A model generated the notes under the pieces. The model was given only the letters and a program-made list of their open reading frames with translations, made no database searches and had not been told where the DNA came from. A stretch of 56,736 nt of DNA from Bacteriovoracaceae bacterium (GTDB taxonomy: Bacteria > Bdellovibrionota > Bacteriovoracia > Bacteriovoracales > Bacteriovoracaceae): contig JAGLPP010000048.1 of assembly GCA_023137315.1 (NCBI GenBank), positions 1 to 56,736 of the forward strand, in the 5' to 3' direction. Of the stretch, positions 14,534 to 22,151 are shown piece after piece. Numbering within the stretch: the stretch's first letter is position 1; each line of letters begins with the position of its first letter. The position numbers were made by a program, and so were the translations under genes.

Positions 14534-14546
14534 CAAGACGGAGTAA
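14534..14546 (+). repeat. CAAGACGGAG repeat, copy 1
   Basis: CAAGACGGAGTAA, identical over 13 bases to copy 2 and copy 5. Its GGAG also serves as the ribosome site of the next gene. Confidence 0.6.
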
Positions 14547-14548
14547 AA

Positions 14549-16048
14549 ATAAATACTATCAAGTTTATACTACCTATCCTGGCTATCTGTCTTCTAATTG
14601 AGGTCAAGGCATCAATTATCGAACAAACCAGGGTTCTTGAAATAAGTGCTTCTGGTCGAAGTGTTATTCTTGATCTTGGGTCAAACGATCAAATTCAAGT
14701 CGGTGACTACGCGAGATTCTATTTTCTTGCTAAAGATCGTGGCATGGAATATTTGGAACACCCAATGATAAATCACCTCGCCTATGGAAAAGTTCTCAGG
14801 GTAACGCAGAGGTATTCCTTTTGGTATTTGCAGGATATTAGGAAACTTGATCTGTTAAAAATCGGAGCAAAGATTAATCTGGCGGTAATGCGAAAGGTTT
14901 TAAAGGGAAGAAGAGGAAATGATGCTGTTTTAACGAAGCAGACAGTTCTTCCTGCGAAAGTTTCCGTCAGCGAATTTGGGAAAAGTTCGCACGATGGAAT
15001 TCCAGACAGCTATATCAAGCATAAAAAAGACTATGATGAAAGTGAAATCGTTGTAAAAACACAAATGCGACATGAGAAGGATTTGGTATCTGAAGTCTAT
15101 TCAAGTTGGCAAAAAGATTCCCCGAAACAAATGGAAGGATTTGATGGGAATCTGGAAACAAGATATTACGATGAAATTCCCCAGGAAGCTGCGGTGTCAG
15201 TAGTGAGAAAGAAGAATGACAGGGACGTTTTTGATTCTGCGATGGATGGGGCTGTCTTGAGCATGAATGAAAAAAATCTCAGAGGAGAGAATAAAAAGGC
15301 CCTTCAGGAGATAGCCTCCAGAATGGGGGATGATGAAATTGAAAATATTTTGGATACCGACGGCCGGTGGTCGAAGGAGATGAGCGATGAACGGTTGAGA
15401 AGATTCATGATTGATACTGGAATTTCCCATGAGATGTCGAGGCAGAGGTTTGCGCTGAAAAACAGTGTGGCACTTGAATTTATTTTTCGTTATGTGACCG
15501 GATTGGTAAAACATGGCGCCAATGTGCAGGAAACAGAGCAGAAAAAAGGAAAATATTATTCGTTTGGTATTGAGTATCAGCTTATAAGGCTTAATGAACG
15601 TTACAGACGGTGGACCGCAGAATTATTTTACGAGAATGGAACCAATACATATCAAATACGTGACGAAGTGAATGTCAGTTCATCTGAGGGGCACTACAAG
15701 ATTGGATTAAACTGGTATTTCTACAACTATCCATCAACAATCCATAGATTACTGATTCATCTTGGAACAAGGATTGGATATGGAAGTGCGAACATGTCGT
15801 CATCTATCCCTGCTGAGTCGTACAAGGGAACAGTGCTGACATTTCCAACAGCACATATCGGGATCAAGTACAGGATCAAGGCTGGTGATGAAGTTGACTC
15901 TGAATCCGGTATCGGCCTTGGATTGAATGCTCTTTTGCAATATGAACAACTGCGTTTTACCTCCAGCGGAGGAAAAAATAGCGATACCAATGGAACATTT
16001 GCAGTAAATGATTTAAAATTTTCCATGGGAATAGGAATGTTTTTTTAG
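14549..16048 (+). CDS. Exported protein with periplasmic head and predicted beta-barrel tail; apparent ATA start
   Basis: The first in-frame ATG is at 14744, but the frame is open upstream to a stop at 14519. The upstream codons read as a good signal peptide: NTIKFILPILAICLLIEVKAS. GGAG (14540-14543) sits 5 nt before an ATA codon at 14549, and no ATG, GTG or TTG precedes 14744. I therefore place the start at ATA, giving 499 residues. The head has a QVGDYARF motif resembling VVGDHAKF in the next gene; the C-terminal 200 residues show alternating strands ending in Phe-Phe, as in outer-membrane barrels. The two neighbours look like diverged paralogues. Function unknown. Confidence 0.65.
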   Translation: MNTIKFILPILAICLLIEVKASIIEQTRVLEISASGRSVILDLGSNDQIQVGDYARFYFLAKDRGMEYLEHPMINHLAYGKVLRVTQRYSFWYLQDIRKLDLLKIGAKINLAVMRKVLKGRRGNDAVLTKQTVLPAKVSVSEFGKSSHDGIPDSYIKHKKDYDESEIVVKTQMRHEKDLVSEVYSSWQKDSPKQMEGFDGNLETRYYDEIPQEAAVSVVRKKNDRDVFDSAMDGAVLSMNEKNLRGENKKALQEIASRMGDDEIENILDTDGRWSKEMSDERLRRFMIDTGISHEMSRQRFALKNSVALEFIFRYVTGLVKHGANVQETEQKKGKYYSFGIEYQLIRLNERYRRWTAELFYENGTNTYQIRDEVNVSSSEGHYKIGLNWYFYNYPSTIHRLLIHLGTRIGYGSANMSSSIPAESYKGTVLTFPTAHIGIKYRIKAGDEVDSESGIGLGLNALLQYEQLRFTSSGGKNSDTNGTFAVNDLKFSMGIGMFF

Positions 16049-16065
16049 TTATTCCAAAATTATTT

Positions 16066-16078
16066 CAAGACGGAGTAA
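16066..16078 (+). repeat. CAAGACGGAG repeat, copy 2
   Basis: CAAGACGGAGTAA, 13 bases identical to copy 1, between the two exported genes. Confidence 0.6.
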
Positions 16079-16091
16079 TTCCCAGAGGCAG

Positions 16092-17243
16092 GTGAAAATG
16101 GAAAGATTATGGATAATTCTTTTGATTGTATCTTTATCAGTCCAGTCATTGCAGGCGTTGGAGATTGATGAGAAATTGACTTGCCGAATACTTCGATTGT
16201 CGTCAACCAAAAAAACAATGTTAATCAATCGAGGACTCGAAGATGGGCTAGTAGTAGGGGACCATGCGAAGTTCTTTATTACATCTGGGGTGATAAGCAG
16301 GGGAGTTGTTATAAAAGCTGCTCCAACACGCTCAATATGGGCACTGTACCGATTGGTCAATCCAAGTGAGGTTGGTGTTGATAGAGTGATCAATCTGAAA
16401 ATTGCGGCACCAGTCAAGCTTACAGGCGACGTATCGAGGGCCTTTGGCATGGATCGTTTTGATGCGGGGGCCACAGTACCGGTTATTACCGGTGGTGGAA
16501 ATGTGGAACTTGGTGGAAGAGTCGGAGATATTCCGGTTGATTACTCAAAGAGACGAAGAGAAAGAAAAAGTGAAGACAAGGAACTTGAGAATATGTATTC
16601 AGGGCAGGGAATGTTGCGGCGAGGGGCCGTCGGTGCGGAAAGTGGTGTGGATATCAGAAAGGATTGGGAGATTTGGGGCCTTCTTCAGTTTAATTCCATG
16701 AGTGGTTCAACTCAAAGCGGAAGTTTGGCAGAGTATTCCGACGATAGCACTTCAATGAGCGGTTATTTGGGGGTTGAGACATATTTTACAAATCGCGCTG
16801 GATGGTACAAGGATATCTCCCCATTTGTTTTTCTCCACAGCGAAACGCTGGCCTTCTCATATGATGACGGAAATTCAAAATCCACCAGCAGTTTGATGGA
16901 ATTTGGCGCTGGAATTAATTATCATTTTCTGGCCGATCCATTTTCATATAACCGGATCATTGGATTTCTTACAACTTCACTGGCTTACGGTTCGGTTGCT
17001 TACAAGGTTGAGTCTGCACTAACGAAAACTACCAAAACATCGTCCACAAAGGATCTCAGTGGAAAAGCACAATCGGTTAATTTTGGCATTGGTGCCAAAT
17101 ATTATTTTGTATTCGGTCTTGGTATAAAAATGATGATTGATTATTATACAAGGGCCGAATCGTATGCTCTGGCAGATGAGGCAGCATTTGATAGGACTTT
17201 CGCTGGATTCAGGTATCTGGCGGGGCTTTCCTATAGATTCTAG
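16092..17243 (+). CDS. Exported protein, paralogue of the upstream gene, predicted outer-membrane barrel
   Basis: 383 residues from GTG at 16092; ATG at 16098 is also possible (AGGCAGGTG precedes it). It has a signal peptide ending near LQALE, then a head with LINRGLEDGLVVGDHAKFF, parallel to LDLGSNDQIQVGDYARFYF in the previous gene. A charged linker rich in Arg/Glu/Lys follows, then a barrel-like domain with alternating aromatic strands and a terminal YRF, the usual outer-membrane insertion signature. Probably co-transcribed with the upstream gene (43-nt gap). Function unknown. Confidence 0.75.
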   Translation: MKMERLWIILLIVSLSVQSLQALEIDEKLTCRILRLSSTKKTMLINRGLEDGLVVGDHAKFFITSGVISRGVVIKAAPTRSIWALYRLVNPSEVGVDRVINLKIAAPVKLTGDVSRAFGMDRFDAGATVPVITGGGNVELGGRVGDIPVDYSKRRRERKSEDKELENMYSGQGMLRRGAVGAESGVDIRKDWEIWGLLQFNSMSGSTQSGSLAEYSDDSTSMSGYLGVETYFTNRAGWYKDISPFVFLHSETLAFSYDDGNSKSTSSLMEFGAGINYHFLADPFSYNRIIGFLTTSLAYGSVAYKVESALTKTTKTSSTKDLSGKAQSVNFGIGAKYYFVFGLGIKMMIDYYTRAESYALADEAAFDRTFAGFRYLAGLSYRF

Positions 17244-17272
17244 ATTCATTATCAAAATTATCAAAAAATTAT

Positions 17273-17286
17273 CAAGACGGAGGAAA
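17273..17286 (+). repeat. CAAGACGGAG repeat, copy 3; left arm of the inverted pair around the RAYT
   Basis: CAAGACGGAGGAAA is an exact 14-base inverted match to 18277-18290. Confidence 0.65.
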
Positions 17287-17291
17287 GGAGT

Positions 17292-17315
17292 ATGAGTAAA
17301 GAGGTTGCATTTTGA
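17292..17315 (+). pseudogene. Seven-codon ORF with strong ribosome site, likely stub of a lost gene
   Basis: GGAAAGGAG is followed by ATG and only seven codons (MSKEVAF) before TGA. It lies in the position of a third member of the upstream exported-protein series, just before the transposase gene. The rest of 17244-17502 is AT-rich and holds nothing else recognisable apart from a 7-bp inverted repeat AATCACG/CGTGATT (17458-17503) at the transposase stop. Confidence 0.3.
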
Positions 17316-17502
17316 ATTATTTTTTTTAATGCTTTTTACTGATTGTAACTTCTTGGGAGAATATTAGCGTGATGATTTTTTTGAATTATTGAAGATTATT
17401 GGATTAAAATTTGTAAAAAATTTGGTTTTTGGTACAGCGATCCTGTTTTAGATTGATAATCACGATATTTGGGGCATCATTTTATTGTTTTCAGAACGTG
17501 AT

Positions 17503-18192
17503 TTAAGTTGAATTGAGAGATTTGTAATTTTTTGTGCGATGATTTTTGATGTTATCATATCTTTGTTTGACCCAAACGGGATTTCCTATAAACAAGGTTG
17601 TCGAATAATTTTGTTTTTTAAACAGTAATTTTTCGTCTTTAAGAATTTCCTCCACCATTTGTAGATATGCTTCATTTCTTTTCTGGTCTGTATTTCCGAA
17701 TTCTAAAAATATTGGCGAGTCTGTAATAAGAGGGTCGGTTTTTCCGTAGGCGTAATGTCTGAACGAAGAATATCGATATTTATCAGGATGTTTTACGATG
17801 TGAGCACGTACTGGATTTAAGTCTATATAGTTCATAACTTTGATTAAAGCAGAATCTTCCTCAATTACATGAGACTTAAATCGATCCATGCAAACCTGCC
17901 CGCGTTTTCCTGTTTTTTTATTGTAGTGACGAGCAAAAAGTGAATTAACAATCCTTATAAAATTGGAAAGATTTTCTTTTTTATCGCAATGACCGGCTAA
18001 ATGAACATGAGAAGACATTAGGCAATATGAATAGATTTCGATTTGATACCGATCCTTGTATTTAAGGAGCAGATCATAATAATATTTCTTAAAATAATTA
18101 GTTTTGAAATAAAATGACTTGTTGTGGCATTGCCACGTTAGATGAAAATAACAATCATTATAAATAATAAGATATCGCGGTAAACTTGCCAT
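17503..18192 (-). CDS. REP-associated tyrosine transposase (RAYT, Y1/HUH family)
   Basis: 229 residues. The HUH nuclease motif is HVH (H62, H64) in the SSHVHLAG context, and the catalytic-Tyr segment is NYIDLNPVRA with Y122, diagnostic of TnpA_REP/RAYT proteins. These enzymes cut and join single-stranded DNA at REP-type hairpins and are usually single-copy and domesticated. No strong ribosome site precedes the ATG. It is flanked at 230 nt (3' side) and 85 nt (5' side) by a 14-bp inverted repeat whose core recurs three more times nearby, a candidate cognate repeat. No accessory TnpB is present. Confidence 0.88.
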   Translation of the reverse strand: MASLPRYLIIYNDCYFHLTWQCHNKSFYFKTNYFKKYYYDLLLKYKDRYQIEIYSYCLMSSHVHLAGHCDKKENLSNFIRIVNSLFARHYNKKTGKRGQVCMDRFKSHVIEEDSALIKVMNYIDLNPVRAHIVKHPDKYRYSSFRHYAYGKTDPLITDSPIFLEFGNTDQKRNEAYLQMVEEILKDEKLLFKKQNYSTTLFIGNPVWVKQRYDNIKNHRTKNYKSLNST

Positions 18193-18276
18193 ATATTGCT
18201 ATATACACGACATGGCAAAAAAATAAAGTCTTATCTGTTTTAAATTACAGGAAGAGAAAATTTAGGTTTTCAACTT

Positions 18277-18290
18277 TTTCCTCCGTCTTG
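18277..18290 (-). repeat. CAAGACGGAG repeat, copy 4; right arm of the inverted pair
   Basis: On the minus strand it reads CAAGACGGAGGAAA, upstream of the transposase start. Confidence 0.65.
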
Positions 18291-18303
18291 TATTTATTTG
18301 TAT

Positions 18304-19593
18304 TTACTTTACGATGACAATATTGCCGATACAACTTATCTTGTAACGGTTTTTTTGGGGACTTTGAAATTCCATCCCCTCATGTTGTTCTCCGGCCGTG
18401 TGGAGGAGGGGGGATATCTGAAAGTTGATTCCAACAATAGCATTACCACCTTTTTTAAATGCCTTTTGTCGAATTTTTTCAGCCAGATCAGTATAGATTT
18501 CATTTAAGCTAGAACAGTACCGGTCTAAAACTTCATTTACTCCGTCTTGATCGGCTTGATTGTTATCAAAAATATTTAATTCAAAAGGATTGGTCTTTTT
18601 CTTATCATCATGGATTGAATTAATTGCTTCCAGCTTGTCTTCACCAATTACGGTATGCTCTGAGACCAGATCTATATATTTGATAATTTGATAATTTTGC
18701 AGAGTGGGTGTTGTTGTGAGGATAATGGATTCAAGCTTGACCGGTTTTTCCGTGAGATTGAGATTTTCCATTTTGTTTTGATGTAGGTTGTATTTACTAA
18801 CAAGACCACGAGAAGATATTTCACAGCTTTTAGAAGGGTGTAGTTGTTCGGAAAGTCCGAACTTGATGTCGACATCATATTGTCTAAAGCGGTGGGCCAG
18901 AGTTATTGCAGCATATTCGCTTATTTGAGATATTAAAACCGATCCGTTTTGCACTCCATGAACAATTGTTTCTTCATTTGTTTTATTTATTATTTTAAAG
19001 TCGCGTAAAATCCTTACAATGTCTTCGGAATCTTCAATATACCTGATGTTTTGGACAATCAGGGCAAATGGAGGATTTCCGCCAGAGGAAATCGTGCCCG
19101 TACAAATACTTTCTCCAAAATGTTGGATGTCTTCAAATCCCTCGGATTTATGATGTTGGATTTCTTCTGGTTCCGTATATGTAAATTCCTCCTCGACTAC
19201 CTGAGAATTATCATCATCTTCCTCTGATGTGTTGAAAATGCTTTCAGTGCTGATTTGTTGTGTAAATTCAGGAGGTTCCTCTATTTCTGTATCCGCTTCC
19301 GCTTCTTCTGGTTCCGGTTCCTCATCAATGTCCGAGGGAGAAAATTGCTCCGTCTTATCATCTTTCTTATCATCTTTATCATCAAATATGGACTCTTCTT
19401 CTTCTATTTCCGGTTCTTCGAGGTCAGATTCATCGGATGGCGCTGAATCGTCATCTTTTTTGTCAATGCCCTTTTTATCGAGAACACGATCGACGCTGGT
19501 ATCATCCAAATGTTCGTATTCAGACAGATTTTCGATTCGTGTGAGATCGTCCTTGTCCTCGGAGTCATTGATTTTATCGTCAGCATCACTCAT
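18304..19593 (-). CDS. Acidic protein with C-terminal YbjQ (DUF74) domain, secA operon
   Basis: 429 residues from the ATG at 19593, which has AGGA 9 nt upstream; an in-frame ATG at 19656 lies inside secA and is rejected. Residues 1-150 are extremely Asp/Glu-rich and likely disordered. From about residue 286 comes ILTTTPTLQNYQI with IDLVSEHTVIGED, and later KAFKKGGNAIVGINFQI, the two signatures of the YbjQ/heavy-metal-binding-like fold, which forms pentamers in known structures. Residues about 160-280 are a separate unrecognised domain. Last gene of a run PP2C-M23-secA; gap to secA is 14 nt. Biochemical role unknown. Confidence 0.8.
   Translation of the reverse strand: MSDADDKINDSEDKDDLTRIENLSEYEHLDDTSVDRVLDKKGIDKKDDDSAPSDESDLEEPEIEEEESIFDDKDDKKDDKTEQFSPSDIDEEPEPEEAEADTEIEEPPEFTQQISTESIFNTSEEDDDNSQVVEEEFTYTEPEEIQHHKSEGFEDIQHFGESICTGTISSGGNPPFALIVQNIRYIEDSEDIVRILRDFKIINKTNEETIVHGVQNGSVLISQISEYAAITLAHRFRQYDVDIKFGLSEQLHPSKSCEISSRGLVSKYNLHQNKMENLNLTEKPVKLESIILTTTPTLQNYQIIKYIDLVSEHTVIGEDKLEAINSIHDDKKKTNPFELNIFDNNQADQDGVNEVLDRYCSSLNEIYTDLAEKIRQKAFKKGGNAIVGINFQISPLLHTAGEQHEGMEFQSPQKNRYKISCIGNIVIVK
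18537..18549 (-). repeat. CAAGACGGAG repeat, copy 5, inside the YbjQ gene
   Basis: On the minus strand it reads CAAGACGGAGTAA, 13 bases identical to copies 1 and 2. Here it encodes QDGV within the coding sequence. Confidence 0.5.
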
Positions 19594-19607
19594 TTTTGCG
19601 TTCCTGA

Positions 19608-22151
19608 TCAGGCCCCGTGGCAATGTTTGAATTTTTTGCCTGAGCCGCATGGACATGGATCGTTGCGTCCAACCTTGTTTTTGCTTCTTGTTACTGTCCT
19701 GCCGCCGTCTTGGGCCATTTTTTGGGCATTTTTAGAGGCCTGTATTTGGTCTTCGAGATGTTTCTGTTGTCTCGCTTTGAGTTGTTCTACCTCTTCAGGT
19801 GTGTAAAATTGAACTTTGAATATATTTTCGACAACAGATTTTTTCACTTCGACTTTCATGTTTCCAAAAAGTTGAAATGATTCACGCTTGTATTCGTTGA
19901 GAGGATCTTTTTGGGCGTACGCACGAAGATTGATTCCTTCTTTTACGGAATCCATGGCGCAGAGATGGTCTTTCCAGTGTTGGTCAAAAATTGAAAGGAG
20001 GATTTCACGGAGTGCCATTTTGATTTGTTCGGAATCATATTTTGCAAATTTTTCTTCAAGAATTTTTTTGGCCTCTTCTGCAAAATATTTTTCGATGTCA
20101 CCTTCATATTTCTGCGAGCATTCAAGAGCGTTTATTTCCTGTTTGGTGTTGAAAGTTGTTTGAAAACCATTTTGCATCTCATCCCATGGCCAGGCTTCGA
20201 GTGGCACCTTGCGACTTGGTCTGTATGCTTCCAGCAGATGTACCGAAACATCTTCGGTCATTTCCGTGACAAAACCAAGGTTGTCCTTGTCTGAGAGTAT
20301 TTCCTTTCTCAGACGGTAAATGACCCTTCGTTGTTCGTTCATTACGTCGTCATATTCCAAAAGGTGTTTTCTTATTTCAAAATGGTAGCCTTCAACTTTT
20401 TGCTGGGCCTTGGCAATTGCATTGCTGATCATTTTGTGCTCGATTGGTTCGTCCTCGTTCATTCCAAGGGTTCCCATGATTCCCTGGATTCTTTTTGAGC
20501 CGAATATTCTCATGAGATCATCTTCAAGGGAGAGAAAGAATCTGGATTCACCGGTGTCTCCCTGTCTTCCTGATCGTCCTCTGAGCTGGTTGTCAATTCG
20601 ACGTGACTCATGTCTTTCTGTTCCAAGGATGAAAAGGCCACCAAGATTTTTTGTTTCTTCCGAGAGCTTTATATCGGTTCCACGGCCGGCCATGTTTGTT
20701 GCGATTGTTACAGCGTTTTTTTGTCCTGCCATCGAAATTATTTTGGCTTCACGGTCGTGCTGTTTAGCATTTAAAACTTCGTGTGGGATTTTTATTTTTT
20801 TGAGAAATTTGGAAATCTGTTCAGAATTGTCTATTGATATTGTGCCGACCAGAACGGGCTGTCCATTTTTGTGAAGTTTTTGAATAAGTTTCCCAACGGC
20901 TTTGTATTTTGCATCCTTTGTTTTGTAGATTACGTCAGCATTATCGACCCTGACCATAGGCAAGTTTGTTGGAATAACTGACACATCCAATTTATAAATT
21001 TTTCTAAATTCCTCTGCTTCTGTGTCGGCGGTACCGGTCATTCCGGAGAGACGGTTGTAGAGTTTGAAGTAGTTTTGAAAGGTGATTTGTGCCAATGTCT
21101 GGTTTTCAGTTTTTACTGTAACACCTTCCTTTGCTTCCGTGGCACCATGAAGGCCGTCAGACCACCTTGATCCTTCCTTTAAACGTCCGGTGAATTCATC
21201 AACGATGATGACCTTGCCGTCCTTTATTACATAGTCAACGTCTTTTTTGAAAAGATAGTGTGCCTTTAGTGCCTGGTTTAGATGGTGCAGTATATTTACA
21301 TGTTCCACGCTGAAAATATTTTCAATACGCACGATCTCCTGAATACGTGTAACTCCATCATCGGTAAAATTGGCGGAACGGGATTTTTCGTCCACTGTAA
21401 AATGGGTCTCTTTCGTAAGTTGCGGTATAACCTTGTTTGCGATGTTATAAAGCCCTGTACTTCCCTCAGCCGGGCCCGAAATAAGGAGTGGTGTTCTCGC
21501 TTCATCTATCAGAATGGAATCCACTTCATCCACGATACAATAGTTGTGCGGGCGTTGGACATAATCATCCAGCGAAAACTTCATATTGTCCCTGAGATAG
21601 TCGAAAGCGAATTCATTGTTTGTTCCGTAGGTGATGTCAGCCTGGTATGCGTCTTTTCTTTCCTCATCTTCAATATTTGCAGTAATGCATCCAACTTTCA
21701 GTCCCAACCATGTTGGAATTTTTCCAGTCCAGTTTGAGTCTCTTGAGGCGAGGTAATCGTTTACCGTGACCAGATGTGCACCTTTTCCTGAAAGACCATG
21801 TAGATAAAGTGGCAGGGTGGAAGCAAGCGTCTTTCCCTCTCCGGTTTTCATTTCCGCAATTTTTCCTTCAAAGAGTATGATTGCACCCATGAGCTGTACA
21901 TCAAAGGCCCTCTCGCCAAGAACTCTTTTCCCAGCCTCTCTGACAGTTGCGAAAGCCTCAGGCATGATTGATTCAAGTGAGGCACCTTTTTTTATCATTT
22001 CCTTTAATTTGGGAGTTTGTGCCTTGAGTTCGTTGTCACCCATTTGTTTCATTTTTTCTTCATATGAGTTAATTAGATCAACGATTGGTTGTAATCTTTT
22101 GAGTTCTCTCTCATGCTTTGTTCCAAAGATTTTTTTAATAACTGATAACAT
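19608..22151 (-). CDS. secA: Preprotein translocase ATPase SecA
   Basis: Motor of the Sec translocon at the inner membrane. 847 residues. Visible: Walker A MKTGEGKT (101-108), DEVDSILIDEARTPL (DEAD-type box), helicase motifs including TNMAGRGTDIKL and QLRGRSGRQGD, and the C-terminal zinc motif CPCGSGKKFKHC. The tail binds zinc and, in other species, SecB or ribosomes. GGGAG lies 7 nt before the ATG. Located between the M23 peptidase and the YbjQ-domain gene, likely one transcript. Confidence 0.98.
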   Translation of the reverse strand: MLSVIKKIFGTKHERELKRLQPIVDLINSYEEKMKQMGDNELKAQTPKLKEMIKKGASLESIMPEAFATVREAGKRVLGERAFDVQLMGAIILFEGKIAEMKTGEGKTLASTLPLYLHGLSGKGAHLVTVNDYLASRDSNWTGKIPTWLGLKVGCITANIEDEERKDAYQADITYGTNNEFAFDYLRDNMKFSLDDYVQRPHNYCIVDEVDSILIDEARTPLLISGPAEGSTGLYNIANKVIPQLTKETHFTVDEKSRSANFTDDGVTRIQEIVRIENIFSVEHVNILHHLNQALKAHYLFKKDVDYVIKDGKVIIVDEFTGRLKEGSRWSDGLHGATEAKEGVTVKTENQTLAQITFQNYFKLYNRLSGMTGTADTEAEEFRKIYKLDVSVIPTNLPMVRVDNADVIYKTKDAKYKAVGKLIQKLHKNGQPVLVGTISIDNSEQISKFLKKIKIPHEVLNAKQHDREAKIISMAGQKNAVTIATNMAGRGTDIKLSEETKNLGGLFILGTERHESRRIDNQLRGRSGRQGDTGESRFFLSLEDDLMRIFGSKRIQGIMGTLGMNEDEPIEHKMISNAIAKAQQKVEGYHFEIRKHLLEYDDVMNEQRRVIYRLRKEILSDKDNLGFVTEMTEDVSVHLLEAYRPSRKVPLEAWPWDEMQNGFQTTFNTKQEINALECSQKYEGDIEKYFAEEAKKILEEKFAKYDSEQIKMALREILLSIFDQHWKDHLCAMDSVKEGINLRAYAQKDPLNEYKRESFQLFGNMKVEVKKSVVENIFKVQFYTPEEVEQLKARQQKHLEDQIQASKNAQKMAQDGGRTVTRSKNKVGRNDPCPCGSGKKFKHCHGA

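What the first reader, a model, noticed from the sequence alone, without database searches (positions are those of the whole stretch)
14534..18549. A REP-associated transposase sits among five copies of one motif, two of them an exact inverted pair around it
CAAGACGGAG occurs at 14534, 16066 and 17273 (plus) and at 18290 and 18549 (minus, read leftwards); I saw no further copy in the window. The copies at 17273 and 18277 match as a 14-bp inverted repeat bracketing the RAYT gene, and three copies share a 13-base form ending TAA. RAYT proteins act on short repeats near their gene, but known REPs carry a GTAG-type tag beside a hairpin; this motif is different. Rival view: GGAG is a ribosome site and the copies before genes are leaders carried along by gene duplication.
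Basis: partly seen in the sequence, partly recalled or inferred. Interest (0 to 1): 0.75.

Follow-up and report, generated by a model that had tools for sequence, protein, structure and literature searches.

The report
Transposase element with CAAGACGGAG end tags
The repeated ten-letter motif marks both ends of a one-kilobase mobile element that carries a REP-type transposase, and relatives of this transposase in many other bacteria have the same core motif at their ends, so this is a real transposase and DNA-tag pair of a known general kind with a tag not found in the papers read.

Summary
CAAGACGGAG occurs five times at 14534-18549; all five are CAAGACGGAG[TG]AA, and that 13-mer occurs nowhere else in the 3.15-Mb genome. 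Comparative data show otherwise.

The genome's single RAYT (17503-18192, minus) lies in a ~1.02-kb insert (17273-18290) bounded by the 14-bp inverted pair. In the two closest relatives this gap is 0 bp. Among 80 homologous transposases, a strongly supported clade of 56 including ours carries the core GACGRA[GC] upstream and inverted downstream. Exact GACGGAG is found 35/53 forward versus 3/53 reverse upstream, and 35/48 inverted versus 0/48 direct downstream. No RAYT outside the clade has the pair. Multi-copy elements in a relative diverge exactly outside the motif, so it is the terminus. Genomes with the GGGG-form tag hold 30-100 copies against 0-6 control.

This is a TIRtron-like RAYT element with a hairpin-less tag distinct from GTAG-REPs and from the published TIR consensus GGGGWSAS. 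Residues reading GTAG in E. coli TnpAREP are replaced. The ribosome-site and duplicated-leader rivals fail. The origin of the three solo copies is unproven.

The parts
17273..18290 (.). RAYT element (about 1.02 kb) inserted between two convergent genes
   Evidence: Bounded by a 14-bp perfect inverted repeat; the stops of the flanking genes are adjacent (0 bp) in relatives L011/L012 versus 1060 bp here
17273..17286 (+). Terminal tag CAAGACGGAGGAAA at the end downstream of the RAYT stop
   Evidence: 3'-side inverted core conserved in clade, 35/48 versus 0/48 direct
18277..18290 (-). Terminal tag CAAGACGGAGGAAA at the end upstream of the RAYT start
   Evidence: 5'-side core conserved in clade, 35/53 versus 3/53 reverse
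17503..18192 (-). REP-associated-type tyrosine transposase (Y1 HUH), 229 aa; HUH = H62-V63-H64, catalytic Tyr = Y122
   Evidence: PF01797 43 bits over cut-off; NF047646 67.3 bits, below its 80-bit cut-off; fold match to TnpAREP 4er8; H62, H64, Y122 invariant
14534..14546 (+). Solo tag CAAGACGGAGTAA in the leader of the gene at 14549-16048
16066..16078 (+). Solo tag CAAGACGGAGTAA in the gap before the gene at 16092; the gap is 12 nt without the motif in L011/L012, 43 nt here
18537..18549 (-). Solo tag CAAGACGGAGTAA inside the YbjQ-domain gene (codons of DQDGV), in a stretch absent from the two nearest relatives
14549..16048 (+). Context: envelope-type protein of unknown family (no Pfam hit), paralogue partner of the next gene; no ATG, frame opens with ATA
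16092..17243 (+). Context: predicted outer-membrane-type protein, paralogue of the previous gene
   Evidence: weak, sub-threshold match to an outer-membrane barrel model
18304..19656 (-). Context: YbjQ-domain protein, next to secA (19608-22151)

Best explanation
The segment 17273-18290 is a mobile or once-mobile RAYT element (TIRtron-like). Its single-strand HUH transposase recognises CAAGACGGAG at both ends, as inverted terminal tags, nicks there through Tyr122 and rejoins strands. The element entered the junction between the 16092-17243 gene and the YbjQ gene, probably by horizontal transfer, since its nearest RAYT relatives are in MAGs labelled as other Deltaproteobacteria/Myxococcota. The three CAAGACGGAGTAA copies within 2.7 kb are solo tags, most likely left or placed by the same enzyme acting on nearby single-stranded DNA. 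Shown: insert, inverted tags, clade-wide conservation, tag as element terminus in relatives, genome-wide tag enrichment in several relatives. Inferred: cleavage at the tag, direction of transfer, origin of the solo copies.
For: Insert versus empty site. Only Y1 transposase of the genome. A 56-member clade with support 100/99 holds all 36 inverted pairs, with none among 24 outside. Strand-controlled enrichment on both sides. Close relatives carry variants of the same 10-mer: CAAGACGGAC, CAAGACGAAG, CCAGACGGAG, TCAGACGGAG. In ten G333/G334 copies pairwise identity is 0.28 and 0.27 outside the tags and 0.78 and 0.59 inside. GGGGACGGAG counts versus reversed control: 98 v 6, 100 v 4, 51 v 1, 48 v 0 in RAYT-clade genomes, control level in 12 genomes that gave no hit of this clade in the RAYT searches. 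Extra copies of the own 10-mer near clade RAYTs: 12 versus 0 control in 47 loci. Fold match to TnpAREP. GTAG-reading residues W94, Q95, E100, R104 replaced by C101, M102, S107, E111.
Against: In its own genome the tag is not dispersed: outside the locus it is at chance, and the broader AGACGRAGG is not enriched (29 versus 38). There is one element copy only, so mobility here is not seen directly. No clear target-site duplication. The assembly is a 223-contig draft, so repeats may be missing.
Confidence: 0.85

Rival explanations
1. The motif is a ribosome-binding leader (GGAG) copied with duplicated genes; its nearness to the RAYT is an accident.
For: Two copies precede paralogous tandem genes; the copy at 14534 has GGAG five bases before the likely start of its gene.
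Against: Flanks of the two leader copies are unrelated (8/30, 4/30). The gene pair lies side by side in the fetched relatives without the motif. The copy at 16066 is 16 nt from its start codon, 18290 precedes no gene at ribosome-site spacing, and 18549 is inside a gene. In RAYT relatives the core is 42-187 nt upstream and inverted downstream, which no ribosome site would give.
Confidence: 0.04
2. The tags are only target sites: the element inserts next to pre-existing GACGGAG-like words, and the solo copies are old local repeats of other origin.
For: Solo tags exist apart from elements; in G333 and G334 some solo tags are shared at matching places.
Against: The core is present at both ends in inverted orientation at steady distances from the gene; a target word would be on one side or in direct orientation. 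Genomes without a clade RAYT show no excess.
Confidence: 0.12
3. The RAYT is a domesticated housekeeping protein and its flanking tags are binding sites for regulation of its own gene, not for movement.
For: Single copy in its genome; most RAYT families are reported as vertically kept single-copy genes (established view in the RAYT literature).
Against: The nearest relatives lack it at this place. Relatives hold up to seven or more copies per genome with diverging flanks. The tag is also on the far side of the gene.
Confidence: 0.08

Closest known systems
TIRtron / TIRYT (Di Nocera et al. 2013, PMC3733652)
   Same: RAYT-like gene without GTAG REPs, flanked by inverted repeats at steady distances; repeats sometimes present as genomic families
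   Different: Published TIR consensus GGGGWSAS; here the core is GACGRA[GC] (CAAGACGG or GGGGACGG do not fit position 7). Most TIRYTs belong to subclass 2.1 with C-terminal HTH domains (PMC6006769); none was found here
REPtron with GTAG REPs (E. coli TnpAREP, 4ER8)
   Same: HUH-Tyr fold, catalytic residues, paired tags around the gene, tags dispersed in the genome in several relatives
   Different: No GTAG and no hairpin at the tag as a rule; residues that contact GTAG are replaced
REPINs
   Same: In G242 short units of 67-149 bp are bounded by inverted tags
   Different: Interiors of these units are unrelated to each other; in the window no such pair exists apart from the element itself
IS200/IS605 elements
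   Same: Y1 HUH transposase and fold
   Different: Here inverted terminal tags; no subterminal hairpins found as a general feature
CGTC-tagged REPs (PMC3733652)
   Same: The reverse complement CTCCGTCTTG contains CGTC
   Different: CGTC REPs are reported as palindromes without a dedicated transposase; the window copies have no adjacent palindrome

Membership tests
RAYT / TnpAREP proteins | HUH motif and catalytic tyrosine of Y1 transposases | tested here: met
   H62, H64, Y122 invariant in 16 and 14 aligned relatives; PF01797 over cut-off
RAYT / TnpAREP proteins | TnpAREP-type fold | tested here: met
   Best PDB fold match 4er8, E 4.7e-5, TM 0.67 by target; sequence profile matches only 4er8
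RAYT / TnpAREP proteins | NCBIfam NF047646 curated cut-off | tested here: not met
   67.3 bits against 80; all 16 clade members match the model at some score
REPtron | GTAG- or GTGG-tagged hairpin (REP) beside the gene | tested here: not met
   Neither GTAG nor CTAC is in the non-coding parts of the element (sequence); tag-side folding no stronger than controls in the clade
REPtron | Many dispersed REP copies in the host genome | tested here: not met
   13-mer five times, all local
TIRtron | RAYT-like gene flanked by terminal inverted repeats | tested here: met
   14-bp perfect pair; clade-wide
TIRtron | TIR motif GGGGWSAS (reported for many, not all) | tested here: not met
   Window ends read CAAGACGGAG; relatives' ends read GGGGACGGAG
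TIRtron | C-terminal HTH domain of subclass 2.1 (PMC6006769) | tested here: not met
   Only Y1_Tnp found in Pfam for all members
TIRtron / RAYT element | Transposase binds and cuts the repeat | not testable with these tools
   Needs a single-strand cleavage assay
Ribosome-binding leader | GGAG 5-9 nt before a start codon at each copy | tested here: not met
   Fits one of five copies

The most novel reading that the evidence does not exclude
The tag itself, a unit of about 10-13 nt without a hairpin, is copied or moved one at a time by this RAYT clade. This would account for single tags in leaders and inside genes near the RAYT here, tandem 12-bp tag arrays in G332, dispersed tags in G333, G345, G073 and G242, and tag pairs around unrelated DNA in G242. 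It would be among the smallest mobile DNA units known.
Probability: 0.3. Interest if true: 0.78.

Novelty: new variant of a known kind. Interest (0 to 1): 0.52.

Why it matters
RAYT elements are usually recognised by GTAG hairpins, and TIR-flanked ones are hardly studied. A clade of more than 50 transposases with a clear short tag, mapped element ends, dispersed tags and altered tag-reading residues makes the link between RAYT protein sequence and DNA tag directly testable, and asks how repeats can spread without a hairpin. It also shows that a short motif at chance frequency genome-wide can still be a true transposase end when judged by comparison across species.

Tried and rejected
Genome-wide REP family in the own genome: rejected, counts at chance. 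Ribosome site or duplicated leader: rejected. Canonical REP with hairpin: rejected for the clade as a whole, though one group (nzgw603 MAG) has a strong hairpin beside the tag. CGTC-REP: rejected, no palindrome. Clean insertion of the tag in the YbjQ gene: the stretch is absent from the two nearest relatives but is longer than the tag, so inconclusive. A clean presence/absence case for a solo tag between G333 and G334: not found; solo tags were shared, or break points fell at tags amid larger rearrangements; a second attempt gave too little alignable sequence. A single-protein scan of genome contigs found nothing; the alignment scan found 42 named relatives.

Full report
Observation. CAAGACGGAG occurs exactly five times in the window, at the stated places and strands; shuffled sequence gives 0.03. 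It is the only 10-mer of the window found five or more times within 4.1 kb. All five copies extend to CAAGACGGAG[TG]AA, and this 13-mer occurs five times in the 3,145,539-base genome, all here. The other three 10-mers in the genome are what base composition predicts (3.0 expected). The pair 17273-17286 and 18277-18290 is a perfect 14-bp inverted repeat.

What lies there. The gene 17503-18192 (minus) encodes a 229-aa Y1 HUH protein: PF01797 above cut-off, REP-associated model NF047646 just below cut-off, invariant H62, H64 and Y122, and a predicted fold (pLDDT 82.6) whose best PDB match is TnpAREP with its REP hairpin, 4er8. It is the only such gene in the genome. It sits between the convergent genes 16092-17243 and 18304-19656. 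In the two closest relatives with the same gene order (secA, YbjQ-domain gene, the two paralogues) the stop codons of these convergent genes touch, and no RAYT is present; here they are 1060 bp apart. The RAYT segment is therefore an insert, and the 14-bp inverted pair lies 29 bp and 13 bp from its edges.

The tag belongs to the transposase clade. I collected homologous RAYTs from the phylum and from named genomes and looked at their flanks. RAYTs of our clade carry GACGGAG, or a one-base variant, upstream in forward orientation and downstream in inverted orientation. In ours the core is 95 nt before the start and 230 nt after the stop. Exact core: upstream forward 35 of 53 against reverse 3 of 53; downstream inverted 35 of 48 against direct 0 of 48; with GACG[GA]A[GC], 46 against 5 and 39 against 4. 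RAYTs outside the clade: 0 of 27 upstream and 3 of 28 downstream, which appear to come from clade members with truncated starts. In a maximum-likelihood tree of 80 proteins one clade of 56 (100/99) holds all 36 paired cases, and none of the 24 outside has a pair. The closest relatives show near-identical 10-mers: CAAGACGGAC, CAAGACGAAG, TAAGACGAAG, CCAGACGGAG, TCAGACGGAG. These relatives are MAGs labelled Deltaproteobacteria or Myxococcota, so horizontal transfer into the window's lineage (Bdellovibrionota, inferred from matching contigs) is likely.

The tag is the element end. Ten copies from two genomes of one genus (G333, G334) agree inside the tags (pairwise identity 0.78 and 0.59) and not outside (0.28 and 0.27); the ends read GGGACGGAG...CTCCGTCCC. 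Genomes with such RAYTs hold many GGGGACGGAG words against the reversed control (98 v 6, 100 v 4, 51 v 1, 48 v 0, 50 v 6, 30 v 5), while 12 genomes that gave no hit of this clade in the RAYT searches stay at control level. Not every genome with a clade RAYT shows the excess: G257, G279 and G290, whose ends read differently, do not. Solo tags cluster near RAYTs: 12 extra copies of the own 10-mer against 0 control in 47 loci, two of the 12 in our own locus; in G333 and G073 clusters reach into coding regions. In G242 eight short units (67-149 bp) are bounded by inverted tags with unrelated interiors. In G332 the tag forms 12-bp tandem arrays.

Why not GTAG. In E. coli TnpAREP the residues W94, Q95, E100 and R104 belong to the GTAG-reading region (PMC6006769). 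In the profile alignment to 4er8 these positions are C101, M102, S107 and E111 in our protein. Hairpins beside the tag are not a general feature (mean z -0.40 inside against -0.21 outside). So the tag differs from REPs both in sequence and in lacking a hairpin; the nearest published relatives are TIRtrons (PMC3733652), whose reported motif GGGGWSAS and C-terminal HTH domains are not met here. I found no mention of the GACGGAG core in the main text of the RAYT papers held; figures and supplements were not readable, so priority is not certain.

Rivals. The ribosome-site view fits one copy of five. The duplicated-leader view fails because the flanks of the two leader copies do not match and because the gene pair lies side by side in the fetched relatives of the same family with no motif at the junction. 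The target-site-only view fails to explain inverted tags at both ends at fixed distances.

How it most likely works. By analogy with TnpAREP, which cuts single-stranded REP DNA and transfers strands (PMC8266576), this RAYT probably binds its tag on single-stranded DNA, cuts nearby through Tyr122 and rejoins strands, so that tag-bounded DNA can move or be copied; the solo tags would be by-products. Binding, cutting and the making of solo tags are inferred, not shown. In the window's genome the system looks quiet: one element, five tags, no dispersal.

Limits. The own assembly is a 223-contig draft at 95% completeness; no same-genus genome is held; a clean presence/absence case for a solo tag was not found.

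Noticed in passing
L127-L149, L043 and other clade RAYT loci, 29-33 nt before the start codon: A sigma-54-like promoter (TTGGCAY-N5-TTGC, GG-N10-GC) sits before many clade RAYT genes: 24 of 54 forward, 0 reverse; 3 of 28 in other RAYTs. The window's RAYT has no good match.
   Followed up: partly
L197-L204 (genome G242): Eight short units of 67-149 bp with perfect 10-13 bp inverted tag ends (GGGGACGGAG, mostly followed by CTC) and unrelated interiors, REPIN-like.
   Followed up: partly
L208 and L209 (genome G332, contigs C139 and C480): The tag GGGGACGGAG forms tandem arrays with a 12-bp period.
   Followed up: partly
L178:593-5098 (genome G333, contig C8): A 1501-residue low-complexity open frame holds nine in-line copies of GGACGGAG, mostly GGGGACGGAGCACC.
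   Followed up: no
L132, L133, L136, L145: In one MAG (nzgw603) the tag AAGACGAAGG is followed by a strong hairpin, and in L145 it is repeated in tandem, closer to a classic REP.
   Followed up: partly
window:14549-17243: Two adjacent paralogous envelope-type genes with no Pfam family. The second has relatives in all but one of the same-family genomes searched and in none of 38 others of the phylum.
   Followed up: partly
window:14549: The gene 14549-16048 has no ATG; the frame opens with ATA five bases after the GGAG of the solo tag, so a tag insertion may have changed its start.
   Followed up: partly
L179:2800-6500 versus L195 (G333 versus G334): Several break points between the two genomes coincide with copies of the tag, including the RAYT element start.
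   Followed up: partly
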